Shown here: piece after piece, positions 11,456 through 54,276 of the stretch
Position numbering within the stretch: position 1 is the stretch's first letter
Layout: every line of letters begins with the position of its first letter
DNA from: Simmondsia chinensis
Taxonomy: Eukaryota > Streptophyta > Magnoliopsida > Caryophyllales > Simmondsiaceae
Direction: 5' to 3'
Assembly (NCBI GenBank): GCA_018398585.1
Contig: JAGTTD010000001.1
Coordinates: 29,581,438 to 29,645,437 of the forward strand
Length of the DNA: 64,000 bases
Notes under the pieces: generated by a model
What the model saw: the letters and a program-made list of their open reading frames with translations, nothing else
Told to the model about the DNA's origin: nothing
The model's database searches: none
Program-made: the position numbers and the translations under genes

Positions 11456-11912
11456 TGTCATGACCCGGGATTTGGGATTAAGTACTAATAGTCCATGGTT
11501 GTAACTAAGTGGTCTAAGTCATTAGTAAGGATAGTATAAGTCATTAGTGAGGATCAATTTAGCTACCTTTTGTGATTGTATTAGTTGTATGGCTCTTGTT
11601 TTGGCTTTAGTATTCTTGTAAGGTAGTTAATATGGTGAGAAGGTTGGGTAAGTAGTTGGTAGTTAATGAATTGTTTAGGTGAAATGCACTAGTCGATATT
11701 TTCTAGCTAACCAACATTGCTAAGAATAATATAAGTAGGATGATCCTGCAATTATAATATTCATTGACGAATATTGAAATTATATTCTTTCTCCCTGATT
11801 CTCTCTACTTCTTATCTATATTCTCTCTATTTCTCATCTGTTTCACTTCTTTTCCCATCTCATACTCTCTTATCCGTAGGTTATAATTCAAGATTTACTT
11901 TGGATCATGACA
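11456..11912 (+). repeat. Element B 5' LTR (457 bp)
   Basis: TGTCATGACCC to CATGACA. It carries AATATAAGTAGG near 11728, a weak TATA-like motif, then a pyrimidine-rich stretch with repeated TCTCATCT near 11790-11870. It ends in an imperfect inverted repeat of about 30 bases (11880-11912). Confidence 0.88.
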
Positions 11913-12372
11913 ATTGGTATCAGAGCTTGTGAATTTGCTTGCAGTTAAGTTGAATTAAGTTCAATTTGATTGCAAAGCATTATATCAAGTTTATAGATAT
12001 CAAACTTGTGATCAGGTTGTGTTTGATCAAGAAATTGTGTTAAATTTTTTAGATTTTCAGATCTTGCTGTATTGAGATTAAAGTTCTACTGTTCAGATTG
12101 ATTGTGATCGAGATTTTAGTTCAAAAGCTTGTTGCTAGTGCAATCTTGCAGCTGACTCTTGTGATCTGGTGATCTTAAACCAGCGACTAAGCTGAAATTA
12201 CATTCGATTCAGCTGATTCCATAGTTCTGAATTTAGGATCTCAACTTCAGTTGAGCAGAGGTGTGGAATTGTTGCTGCAAGTGAGCTGAAGTCCTGACGT
12301 TAATCAGCTGCAGTACACTTTGATTCATTGTTCTTGCGATTGATAACAAACATTGCCTTTGACGTTGCTAAC

Positions 12373-14072
12373 ATGTCTGCAGTGGTTGCTGATAGCTCAA
12401 TTCAGTCAAGGCAATTTGCTCAAGTGCAACAGCTGTTACAAGAGATGCATGATGCAGTGGAGAATCATAACCAATCCGTGAGGCAATTGATATAGTAGCC
12501 TTTCACTGAGAAATGACAGTTAATGAACCAGTTAATGGACCAATGGATAGCAGGAATGTAAGAGCAAATGTAGCAGCAAACTATGGAAACACAAGACAAG
12601 AATAAAGTGGCATCAGTTCAAATTTATGTTATAGATTTAGAGCCTGATCAAGATGATTTGATGCAAGATCAACAACATAATCTGAAGGAGAAAGAACCTT
12701 TTCGAGCTAGTGTGTCAATTTTACAACTTAAGGAAGTTGATCAGCAGCAGATTAATATGCCAATGGAGGATAAAAATTCTGTACAGCAGCTAAATTGCCA
12801 ATCACGGGAGGTCGATCTAGAAGTTCCGTAAAGAACACACAAGTGGTTAAAAGAGTAACAATTCCAGTTAAACTAAGACCTCTTGGTCTAGGGAAGGAGG
12901 AATTTAATGTCACTTAGGAAAGTAAACAACAATCACAGTAGAAAATTGAGCATGAAGAAGAGAAAAACTTAGTTGACAGTGGTGGATTCAGTTGGAACTT
13001 GGGAGCTACAGCTACAAGTCAGGACATTAACATCACACAAGGCCTTGAGACTAAGAGCAGACTTGGTTTGATTGAATTTCAAAAGCTTAGCGCTACAGTG
13101 ATAGCCACAATTCAGAACAAAAGTGTACCATCGCAATCTAAAAAATCACTGAAAGTTGCTGCAAAGGAAGTGCAAGTGGAAATAGAAGTTCTAAGCTTCA
13201 AAATGTTGCATTTGAAGCTGATCTTATAGCCTAAAATTGAGATCAAGTTGGCAATTTGTCTTAGTAGCAAGAAGTGCTTTTCAAGTAAGAAATTAAGAGC
13301 ACTGATGAAGCCAATCTTGGTCTATGAGGGGAGACCTCTTGATTTTCTACTTCTCAAGTCAAATAAAGTGATTTTTGACAAGTTTTATATGCTCAAGAAT
13401 AAGAAATTGAGGCAGCCTAAGTTGGTGATGTGGTTAATAGATAGACTTGGGGCTTGTTCATGGATCAAAGGGACAATTAAGTTGGCAAGGAAAAGGTCGA
13501 ATTCTATCAGTAATGATACAAATTTAGCAAGAAACCTCGGTCTTTTTACCGCAGTACAATCAAATTTAGTAAAGAAACAGGTTGTTACTGCTGCAACATC
13601 TCAATCGGTTGTACATGATGTCTTGTCGAAAGCTTATGTTAGGCAAATCAAAGGCAAAGGGAAACCCCTAAGGGTACAAGCAAAAATGAGACTACCTAAG
13701 TTTCTTTAGCTTATACTCCAACAACATCGTTTGAAACAACAAGTCAGCCTAAGAATTGATTATAAAGGAAATCAAGGATTAAGTGAGGTTCAAGATTATA
13801 TAATGGAAGAGTTGGTGGATGAGTGTGAGTGGTGTGTTGTGACGATCGATCACCTTGATTGCAAGGACCAGAGAGTTTCTGTTGAGAAGTACTATATGAA
13901 AACAAGTGCAATCTCTACTATTGAGCTTGGTCAAGTCAGTAAGGAGGTGGTGAGCAACCCAGGCGCATGCAAACGCAAAGTCATTGCTTGCTGTCTTGAA
14001 GGAAGGCCAGAAGTTCCAAGACCATGGAATTCAAATTTACTTGAATCAATTGAACTGCAGAGACTCTTTTGA
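12373..14072 (+). pseudogene. Element B internal ORF, unknown protein (conserved with H and I)
   Basis: Begins at ATG 12373, about 460 bases after the primer site, where gag starts in the autonomous relatives. The first part (to 12831) is rich in Gln, Glu and Asp and carries several stops. A frame change follows, and from 12999 one frame runs to 14072 with only TAG 13227 and a stop near 13708. The block at about 13160-13530 aligns without gaps to element H 39289-39645: SFKMLHLKLIL, KKCFSSKKLRALMKPI, FLLLKSNKV, QPKLVMWLIDRLGACSWIKG, SNSISND. Roughly half the residues are identical. No zinc knuckle, protease DSG, FFDD or integrase motif is present. I do not recognise the family. Function is unknown; a gag-like or RNA-binding role is only a guess. 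Confidence 0.6.
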
Positions 14073-14895
14073 ATGCAAGAAACAAAGGGCTGTTCAGATA
14101 GGAGCTGAAAGCTTGGCGAAAGACCTGAAATCCTTGTGCTGCAGGCTGTGGGCAGTTAGTTGGGCTACCTTGAGGGTTCAAACTCTGAAAGAATCTCCTT
14201 GGAGTTCAACCATGATATTTGAGGACTTATCTTGGAGGAGTAAAGTTAGAATGTTGCACTGGGAAGCAATTTATAGGTGTTTTTTGTGTACGGTTTACCC
14301 TTAAAGTTAGAAAACGATGCTGGAGAGTGAAGCATAAGTTGGCATTGGTAATTTGGGAAGGATATGATAAGGGAAGAAGAAAATGACCGTTGAGGAAGGA
14401 GTTCAAGGCTGGGCAAAAGATGCCATAGACTATTGTTCTGTCATTGATGCACTAAAAATTATGAAGAGGAAGAAGGAGAATGATATGCAACCTTGTGAGA
14501 ATCATCAAAGGCTCAAGCGTATTCATGCCGTGATCAAAAGTAGTAGGAAATTTGCAGTGAAACCTCTCAAATGGGAGGAGATTTGCTAGCTTTTCTTAAG
14601 TCATGCTGCAGAAACGAAATCAGGACTGCAAGAGGAGTGCTGAAATCGATTGGGAATGGATTTTGGAGAAACTATAGGAGTAGAATTGAGATCCAAAGTT
14701 GTTGCAGTGTACGTACAAGTCAATAAGAAACTTCAAGTTTCGAAGTCAGCATCAATTGTCGAAGCTACAATGCCAGCAACAAGACTAGTTTAACATCAAG
14801 ACAAGGTCATGAGACAAGTTCAACATCAAGGGTTCTTCAAGTCACAACTCTCTACTAAGATTTTTGAGGACAAGAATCTCTAAAGGGGAGAGTAT
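14073..14895 (+). other. Element B 3' internal region
   Basis: Contains short open stretches (for example 14383-14589) that I cannot relate to any family, then the sequence before the polypurine tract. The stem-loop TTTTTGAGGACAAGAATC near 14859-14880 resembles the one before the 3' LTR in the other short-LTR elements. Confidence 0.45.
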
Positions 14896-52842: not shown

Positions 52843-53598
52843 TGCATTGAACAATATCTTAGAAGCATGGTATTTAGCCATCCGAAGGTGCGGAGTAGGT
52901 GGCTTTCATTGGCGGAATATTGGTATAACACTCATTTTCATGCTTCCTTGGGTACAACACCTTTCAAGGCACTATATGGGTATGATCCTTCCAACCCATT
53001 ACTGTTACAAGGAGAACAAACACAAGTGTATTAAGTAAATGACCTGCTACATCACAGAAAACATCTGATGCAGCTTCTAAAGCACAACCTCACTCACGCT
53101 CAGGCCAGGATGAAGTGGTACACAGACCGTAAGAGGGTGGACATAAATTTTAATGTTGGTGACATGGTATATTTGAAACTTCAACCATACCGGCAGTCAA
53201 CAACAGCTGTGAGGAAGAATGTCAAGCTTTGTGCTCGGTTCTTTGGGCCATACAAGGTCTTGGAAAGGAGTGGTCAAGTGGCATACAAGCTAGAGCTTCC
53301 TCCCGATTCATATATTCACCCTGTTTTCATGTTTCTCTTCTTAAGAAACAGGTTAAGCGTGATAACAAGGCCTCTGCAGCACCTCCTGAAGTTGGACAGA
53401 ACGGTTCTCTGATCTTACAGCCAGCAGCAGTGGTCGAAGCTATACATACCAGCTCCCATGACAAGAACAAGCAGCAAATTCGAGTTAATTGGTGCAATTT
53501 AGACCAAGCATTCACTACATGGGAAGATAAACATTTTTTGTTAAGTCAATTTCCTTCTTTTATTTCTTAAGGACAAGAAAATTGTAAGTGGAGGGGAT
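52843..53598 (+). pseudogene. Element J integrase C-terminus and chromodomain-like tail
   Basis: Continues in the same frame to TAA 53032, then VGDMVYLKLQPYRQ and LPPDSYIHPVF. A frameshift near 53330 moves to the frame HVSLLKKQV and ends RVNWCNLDQAFTTWEDKHFLLSQFPSFIS (53490-53570, in part). The W...TTWED pattern is the chromodomain-like end. The polypurine tract follows. Confidence 0.87.
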
Positions 53599-53920
53599 TG
53601 TTATATTTTTAATCATTGTAATTCAATTAAGTAATTAGCAGGCTTAAGCACTTGTTTAGGCGGGAAAGTTCGTTAGTTCGGTTAGTGTTGCTGGAGGTTT
53701 TGGCGGGAAGAATCAGGAGTGAAGTTTGTGTTTGCTTAGTTCTATAAATAAGATCCAATACTTGTAATTAGATCATCCAATGAAATACATACTAATCCTT
53801 GTGATTAAAACTTCTTTCTTTCATCTTAACTCTTCTATTTTCTCATCTCCTTCACTTCTTTCTCATCCCAAATTCAATTGATTCTTAGGTTAAGTTCAAG
53901 ATTTAATCTAGAACTTAACA
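53599..53920 (+). repeat. Element J 3' LTR (322 bp)
   Basis: Same length as the 5' copy with about 15 substitutions and no indel. The terminal inverted repeat is unchanged. TATTC follows. Confidence 0.92.
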
Positions 53921-53925
53921 TATTC

Positions 53926-54276
53926 CTCTAACTCGTGTTCATCAATTTTAGCATTACAGTGGTCTAATTCATCTTCAACGGCAACAGATTCCACTCCAAC
54001 CTTGTCTTTTTGCTCAACATTGAGTTCTTGTTGTATAACTCTATCCATTAGCTCCAAGGGCTCATTTGCATCAAGAACACCAGTACAACCTTGATTGATG
54101 TTTGCAGACTGATGAGCTGAATCATGCTGATCAACACTTCACTGCAACACTTGGTCCATTGCCTGTTTCACTCTCTGCCAAAACTCCTCGTGGTCTTGTC
54201 TCAATATTTGCTTCAATTTCTCCCAAGAATCACTCATCTCGGATTGACAAGAGCTATAATCAACCATACCAGCCAT
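53926..54276 (-). pseudogene. Element I internal ORF, N-terminal part
   Basis: ATG at 54276 (minus) starts an acidic, helix-prone protein (MAGMVDYSSCQSEMSDSW, LKQILRQDHEEFWQRVKQAM). It has one TGA near 54140 and then continues open into EDELDHCNAKIDEHELEE at the J insertion site. The frame resumes beyond J at 48375. Confidence 0.55.

What the first reader, a model, noticed from the sequence alone, without database searches (positions are those of the whole stretch)
11456..54276. A non-autonomous retrotransposon family with its own conserved ORF (elements B, H and I)
B, H and I have LTRs, tRNA-Met primer sites and polypurine tracts but no gag-pol motif. Yet B 13160-13530 and H 39289-39645 align without a gap over about 115 residues with roughly half identical (for example SSK-LRAL--PI, LLL----V--DK, QPK-V-W-IDRLGA-SWIK, NSI-ND). 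I (minus, near 47540-47730) shares MLQLKQMLQP-I-I and M-ELRA. The LTRs of the three are clearly different, so the protein block has lasted longer than recent copying. Seen: the alignment and the absence of pol. Inferred: selection for a useful protein, perhaps a gag substitute or RNA-binding factor that helps trans-mobilisation.
Basis: partly seen in the sequence, partly recalled or inferred. Interest (0 to 1): 0.88.

Follow-up and report, generated by a model that had tools for sequence, protein, structure and literature searches.

The report
Jumping genes carrying an RNA-binding protein
Two decayed "jumping genes" in this plant-like DNA belong to a very large group that lacks the usual copying genes but still carries its own conserved protein gene, and fuller relatives in the same genome show that this protein begins with an RNA-binding domain, which suggests a DNA parasite that brings its own RNA-handling tool.

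Summary
B and H are LTR elements with Met-tRNA primer sites and no pol match. Their shared block aligns without a gap at 61/124 residues and lies in a frame short of stops (B: 2 in 376 codons; the other two forward frames have 29 and 39). In the window's own genome the B ORF gives 973 first-look candidates. In 39 fetched copies the block evolves under purifying selection: dN/dS 0.35-0.43 against 0.87-0.92 in control frames.

The main new result: 21 of 39 copies carry a PTB/hnRNP-L-type RNA recognition motif (Pfam RRM_8) upstream of the block. A genome search gave 2202 first-look RRM_8 candidates; the 150 best were scored and all pass the Pfam cut-off. All eight loci I opened are LTR elements with the same primer site and no gag-pol match. 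Three of the eight hold RRM and block in one uninterrupted ORF.

B and H are therefore broken, RRM-less members of a large clade of non-autonomous LTR elements that encode their own RNA-binding protein. What the protein does (helping packaging by autonomous partners, or acting on host RNA) is inferred. Weak Gag similarities leave a Gag origin open. Wheat RLG_Sabrina and RLG_Quinta are the nearest known parallels.

The parts
11456..15328 (+). Element B, non-autonomous LTR element; LTRs 11456-11912 and 14896-15328 (84%); TSD TTAAC 11451-11455 / 15329-15333
11915..11926 (+). B primer binding site TGGTATCAGAGC (initiator Met tRNA type; name recalled)
   Evidence: no mismatch
12942..14069 (+). B remnant of the protein frame: 376 codons with 2 internal stops (13227, 13707)
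   Evidence: other forward frames 29 and 39 stops
13147..13521 (+). B conserved block (DNA homologous to H 39270-39644, ungapped)
   Evidence: purifying selection
14861..14877 (+). B motif before the polypurine tract, shared with the autonomous elements of the window
   Evidence: 1 mismatch
38164..42402 (+). Element H, non-autonomous LTR element nested in autonomous element G; LTRs to 38588 and from about 41977 (93%); TSD GCCTG/GCCTA
38591..38602 (+). H primer binding site TGGTATCAGAGC
   Evidence: no mismatch
39179..40516 (+). H remnant of the protein frame: 446 codons with 5 internal stops
   Evidence: other forward frames 32 and 42 stops
39270..39644 (+). H conserved block
   Evidence: profile E 5e-92; H was among the sequences of that profile
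39917..40060 (+). H stretch with weak similarity to Gag (SV-EF--RFE--R)
   Evidence: i-E 0.003-0.005
41943..41959 (+). H motif before the polypurine tract
   Evidence: no mismatch
46697..62475 (-). Element I (minus strand), interrupted by nested elements J and K; 5' LTR broken by another insertion
47615..47681 (-). Piece of the conserved block in I
   Evidence: block profile positions 41-107, E 1.9e-8

Best explanation
B and H are decayed, RRM-less members of a large clade of non-autonomous Ty3-type LTR retrotransposons. These elements keep LTRs, a Met-tRNA primer site and mostly a pre-PPT motif like those of the autonomous elements around them, but have no match to the window's Gag-Pol. Instead they encode one protein. 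In its fuller form this starts with a PTB/hnRNP-L-type RNA recognition motif and, in one branch, continues into the conserved block. Shown: the elements, the frame, the RRM, the single ORF in three loci, copy numbers (first look) and purifying selection. Inferred: autonomous relatives supply the enzymes in trans, and the RRM protein binds the element's own RNA and raises its stability, export or packaging into the partner's particles, which would explain why the gene is kept in elements that are otherwise stripped.
For: 973 first-look candidates for the B ORF DNA. The block frame is short of stops in 41 copies from about -210 to +1140. NG86 dN/dS: B-H 0.38, H against all 0.35, within 0.43 (780 pairs), control frames 0.87 and 0.92. 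In the block, variants seen once have omega 1.21 and shared variants 0.72, Fisher p 2.5e-5; control frames p 0.36 and 0.66. RRM_8 in 8 of 10 ORFs scanned (picked because they looked RRM-like), 6 over the Pfam cut-off, best 2e-16; hnRNP L 5.6e-11 and PTB1 1.4e-5 among solved structures. RRM upstream of the block on the same strand in 21 of 39 copies. In the five of these whose main RRM hit lies in the block frame, RRM to block has 4-10 stops against 29-64 in the other frames. Genome: 2202 first-look RRM_8 candidates, 150 of 150 scored over the cut-off. 8 of 8 opened loci have an LTR pair, PBS directly after the 5' LTR and no match to the window's gag-pol; 3 of 8 have RRM + block in one uninterrupted frame of 455-745 codons, stop to stop. 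RRM between the two types in block copies: pS 0.75, pN 0.34; within type dN/dS 0.57 (no control frame was run for the RRM).
Against: No expression, binding or mobilisation data. Neither B, H nor I has a significant RRM match (one window hit, i-E 2.2). Outside the block the single/shared test gives omega near 1 upstream and downstream of it in the block frame although stops are few, and it gives low p in single frames of the 5' part (8e-4 with B as reference, which has no RRM; 1.7e-4 with L043; 0.004 with L023), so its p values alone are not proof. Gap lengths are not enriched for multiples of three. Within one RRM type shared and single variants do not differ (0.81 and 0.83). Pyrimidine-tract or CA motifs are not enriched in the leaders of eight RRM elements. 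RRM proteins could act on host RNA instead. No autonomous partner was matched one to one.
Confidence: 0.62

Rival explanations
1. The protein is a strongly diverged Gag: the block sits inside or in place of the capsid region of an old Ty3 Gag, and the elements are semi-autonomous Gag donors or Gag-derived parasites.
For: In the right order and mostly in the block frame: capsid-start-like motif upstream (L039, L028; i-E 0.001-0.007), H 39917-40060 like the capsid centre (0.003), zinc-knuckle-like stretch downstream (L037 4e-4, L043, L047); 9 hits with i-E up to 0.01, 3 of them from a Gag stretch beside the element in L018, against 0 hits in reversed and reverse-complement controls. A profile comparison puts block residues 54-84 on the capsid start, P 0.065.
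Against: No Pfam Gag hit in the block ORFs. Zinc ligands mostly lost. The copies are homologous, so these are about three observations. Only two hits, i-E 0.13 and 0.73, in the eight RRM loci. The N-terminal domain is an RRM.
Confidence: 0.2
2. The RRM protein acts on the host: it is kept because it changes splicing, silencing or export of host or element RNA, not because it helps packaging.
For: PTB and hnRNP L are splicing regulators (recalled). No enrichment of their motifs in the element leaders.
Against: No direct evidence either way.
Confidence: 0.22
3. A host PTB gene fragment was captured once and is carried passively; its conservation only reflects recent copying.
For: Gene capture by LTR elements is known (recalled; PMC3726574 seen in a listing only).
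Against: dN/dS well below control frames in the block; RRM pN far below pS between element types whose LTRs differ in length and mostly share only 40-210 nt.
Confidence: 0.05
4. The block is a conserved RNA signal, not a protein.
For: Non-autonomous elements must keep cis signals.
Against: Third-position excess among parsimony changes, 242/228/325, and stop depletion in one forward frame (one minus-strand frame is also low inside the block, 0.02-0.06).
Confidence: 0.02

Closest known systems
RLG_Sabrina_NA2-NA8 of wheat (PMC9744471, section 2.7 and passages read)
   Same: Gypsy elements without RT and INT in which the GAG-Pro region is replaced by sequences encoding short proteins; four without homology to other wheat proteins; an autonomous family (RLG_Wilma) proposed as partner.
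   Different: There two proteins resemble viral capsid-formation proteins; no RRM is mentioned in the section I read. Here an RRM is shared by element types with different LTRs.
RLG_Quinta / RLG_Cereba of wheat (PMC11302176, passages read)
   Same: Non-autonomous partner sharing diagnostic LTR, PBS and PPT motifs with the autonomous element, encoding its own protein including a domain of unknown function (DUF1).
   Different: Quinta has a clear GAG; here Gag is at best a weak trace.
TR-GAG elements (seen in search listings; definition recalled)
   Same: Non-autonomous LTR elements with one ORF.
   Different: The ORF should be a recognisable Gag; none found by Pfam.
LARD and TRIM (recalled)
   Same: LTR elements moved in trans.
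   Different: Defined as without coding capacity; here a frame under purifying selection.
Additional ORFs (aORFs) of Retand and other LTR elements (PMC11963269, passages read)
   Same: Family-wide extra protein of unknown role.
   Different: There the extra ORF mostly accompanies gag-pol, is antisense in Retand, and its domain probably binds DNA.

Membership tests
Non-autonomous LTR retrotransposon | LTR pair, PBS, PPT, no complete gag-pol | tested here: met
   B and H; 8 of 8 RRM loci have LTR pair and PBS and no gag-pol match, 6 of 8 the pre-PPT motif with up to 3 mismatches; of 39 block copies 22 have an LTR pair in the stretch fetched and 18 have PBS and pre-PPT motif without a gag-pol match between them
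TR-GAG | recognisable Gag domain | tested here: inconclusive
   no Pfam Gag hit; weak profile hits to Gag
LARD | no coding capacity in the internal region | tested here: not met
   selected frame; open frames of 455-745 codons in five chosen loci
TRIM | very short, no coding capacity | tested here: not met
   B 3.9 kb and H 4.2 kb, selected frame
RLG_Sabrina_NA / RLG_Quinta type | own non-pol protein plus cis signals shared with an autonomous Ty3 partner | tested here: met
   shared U5/PBS stretch and pre-PPT motif with window elements (for RRM loci in part); own protein. One-to-one partner and co-activity not tested
RRM_8 / PTB-hnRNP L RRM | score over the Pfam gathering cut-off (26.2) | tested here: met
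   6 of 10, 150 of 150 scored, L048 and L049
RRM_8 / PTB-hnRNP L RRM | binds RNA | not testable with these tools
   needs an in vitro assay

The most novel reading that the evidence does not exclude
A class of LTR retrotransposons in this plant lives by a protein of its own that is neither Gag nor Pol: a PTB-type RRM fused to variable second domains (the block here, coiled-coil-like stretches elsewhere). It acts as an RNA adaptor that steers the element's transcript into particles of autonomous elements, so that the parasite competes by RNA binding instead of only by keeping cis signals.
Probability: 0.38. Interest if true: 0.86.

Novelty: new variant of a known kind. Interest (0 to 1): 0.76.

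Why it matters
Non-autonomous LTR elements are usually seen as passive cargo. A clade with over two thousand first-look candidate loci that maintains an RNA-binding protein by selection would show that trans-mobilised elements can compete through a protein of their own. It also gives a direct test: does an RRM of the splicing-factor type bind the element's RNA, and does that raise its share of the partner's particles? It warns annotators too that PTB-like genes can be multiplied by transposons.

Tried and rejected
Protein database searches: the B ORF and the 17-row block alignment found nothing at E up to 10. The database is thin for this plant: J's 732-residue gag-pol frame found only two proteins, at 25-27% identity, so absence says little. 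Pfam found nothing solid for the block itself (in one search five families matched one member each, best E 0.0045). PDB by sequence: the B ORF alone gave two matches with E 1.4-1.5, the alignment none. Viral contigs and plasmids: nothing. Structure prediction of the B ORF with H pieces: pLDDT 35.5, unusable, no fold search run. Gap lengths in multiples of three: no enrichment. Off-diagonal repeats: modules move and recur, not resolved. PTB/hnRNP-L motif enrichment in leaders: none; the body is enriched for TCTT-type motifs, but the minus strand holds more of them. Direct H-type block search of the genome: not completed. The last two paper searches on RRM and LTR elements failed on time. The earlier ones listed no paper whose title or shown abstract start describes an RRM in a plant LTR element; that is a statement about those listings only.
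Full report
What was checked. The window is a nest of Ty3-type LTR elements in a plant-like genome of 831 Mb held as G000. B and H are LTR elements of 3.9 and 4.2 kb with LTR identities of 84% and 93%, perfect Met-type primer sites and target duplications read by eye. No pol shows in them by DNA or by ORF comparison with the rest of the window. The shared block is real DNA homology: 375 nt, 70%, no gap. 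In the proposed frame 61 of 124 residues agree; the other five frames give 48-56, so half-identical residues alone prove little. Pair differences by codon position, 33/35/47, are not decisive.

The frame. B's frame holds 2 stops in 376 codons and H's 5 in 446, against 29 and 39, and 32 and 42, in the other two forward frames of the same stretches. Averaged over 39 genome copies plus B and H, frame 0 has few stops from about -210 to +1140 around the block start, mostly well under the other two forward frames; one minus-strand frame is also low inside the block.

Copies and selection. A genome search with the B ORF gave 973 first-look candidates, 40 of them scored, 79-88% identical apart from B itself and two short extra matches. 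I fetched the other 39; they are the best-scoring ones, not a random sample. 22 of 39 have an LTR pair around the block inside the stretch fetched, 27 a primer site, 26 the pre-PPT motif; three match gag-pol, one (L018) by a Gag stretch that I take for a neighbouring element and two by a 20-residue motif only. Parsimony changes by codon position are 242/228/325 in 13230-13496, with variants seen once flat at 71/60/58. In the block, variants seen once have omega 1.21 and shared ones 0.72 (Fisher p 2.5e-5; control frames p 0.36 and 0.66); with transversions only 1.32 and 0.63, p 0.011. NG86 dN/dS is 0.38 for B-H, 0.35 for H against all, 0.43 within, and 0.87 and 0.92 in control frames. I read this as selection while the elements were spreading and decay after insertion. 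Against this: flanks of the block in the block frame show omega near 1; the same test gives low p in single frames of the 5' part (8e-4 with B, 1.7e-4 with L043, 0.004 with L023 as reference), some of which may be the RRM in a shifted frame but not in B, which has none; and gap lengths show no multiple-of-three excess. The stop at 13227 is a glutamine codon in many copies, fitting C-to-T decay; that reading is inference.

The RRM. Listing ORFs upstream of the block showed a domain that Pfam names RRM_8: of ten ORFs that looked RRM-like, 8 hit it, 6 over the cut-off, best 2e-16; the nearest solved structures are hnRNP L (5.6e-11) and PTB1 (1.4e-5). A profile from six copies finds it in 22 of 39 copies: 21 upstream of the block on the same strand, and L018 only on the opposite strand downstream. 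The window has no significant match (one hit, i-E 2.2). In the five copies whose main RRM hit lies in the block frame, RRM to block has 4-10 stops against 29-64 in the other frames; in the others indels have shifted the frames. A family search of the genome gave 2202 first-look candidates and scored 150, all over the cut-off, with open frames up to 745 codons; these are the best-scoring ones. All eight have an LTR pair (86-97%), a primer site directly after the 5' LTR and no match to the window's gag-pol; six of eight have the pre-PPT motif with up to 3 mismatches. Three of eight, all from the first five, hold RRM and block in one uninterrupted frame; the other five have no block match. L050 and L052 continue instead into coiled-coil-like sequence (my reading); L054 and L055 have a stop in or at the edge of the RRM stretch. 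A methionine lies within nine residues before the RRM in six of eight (read by eye). RRM pairs between the two types in block copies reach pS 0.75 with pN 0.34, and within type dN/dS is 0.57; among the eight loci pN is below pS in every pair. Within one type shared and single variants do not differ.

Relation to autonomous elements. The U5 end plus primer site and the motif before the polypurine tract are shared by B, H, I and gag-pol elements of the window; element C shares the pre-PPT motif. LTRs of L048, L049 and L051 match window LTRs mainly over their last 110-220 nt, L050 over about 40 nt, L052-L055 not at that threshold. Pair by pair, LTRs of the eight loci, B and H differ in length and mostly share only stretches of 40-210 nt towards the 3' part; L050 matches none of the others (filter off, with the filter on, showed fewer). 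So trans-mobilisation by Ty3 relatives is plausible, not shown.

Gag traces. A Gag profile from the window's autonomous elements finds short weak matches in order along the frame: capsid start upstream (L039, L028), capsid centre in H, and a zinc-knuckle-like stretch with ligands mostly lost downstream. There are 17 hits with i-E up to 1, three of them from L018's Gag stretch, against none in two controls. Profile-profile comparison places block residues on the capsid start at P 0.065. I keep a Gag origin as a rival.

Reading. The best account is a clade of non-autonomous elements that encode an RRM protein, of which B and H are old, broken, RRM-less members. B's nearest fetched relatives over the whole 5' part, L013 and L045, also have no RRM hit, so N-terminal modules differ between branches. 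Function is inferred.

Known parallels. Wheat RLG_Sabrina variants replace GAG-Pro by genes for short proteins (PMC9744471, section 2.7 read), and RLG_Quinta carries GAG plus a domain of unknown function with shared cis signals (PMC11302176, passages read). Extra ORFs are known in Retand (PMC11963269, passages read). My paper searches listed no plant LTR element with an RRM by title or shown abstract start; two such searches failed. RRMs in ORF1 of LINEs are known (recalled). I call it a new variant of a known kind.

Noticed in passing
61360-62287: The 5' LTR of element I is split by about 930 bp that holds an ORF (61485-62123) resembling the end of a LINE (my reading) and stops at an A-run before the LTR resumes.
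   Followed up: partly
17488-19780: Element C is a further small LTR element (LTRs 91.7%) with the same pre-PPT motif but no Met primer site found just after its 5' LTR.
   Followed up: partly
40716-40791: H holds a second partial copy of the block start (profile E 2e-5), suggesting that modules of the frame are duplicated.
   Followed up: partly
G000:C8:11639580-11646668: Five RRM_8 matches in a row about 1712 bp apart, a likely tandem array of RRM-bearing units; asked for, not fetched.
   Followed up: no
L050, L052: RRM elements with 776- and about 650-bp LTRs and coiled-coil-like C-termini and no block: other branches of the RRM clade.
   Followed up: partly
3267-3837: Five imperfect 81-nt repeats in an AT-rich stretch of the first element.
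   Followed up: no
48376-53920 and 54442-60229: Autonomous elements J and K, nested in I, LTRs 95% and 97%, with long gag-pol frames; candidate partners.
   Followed up: partly
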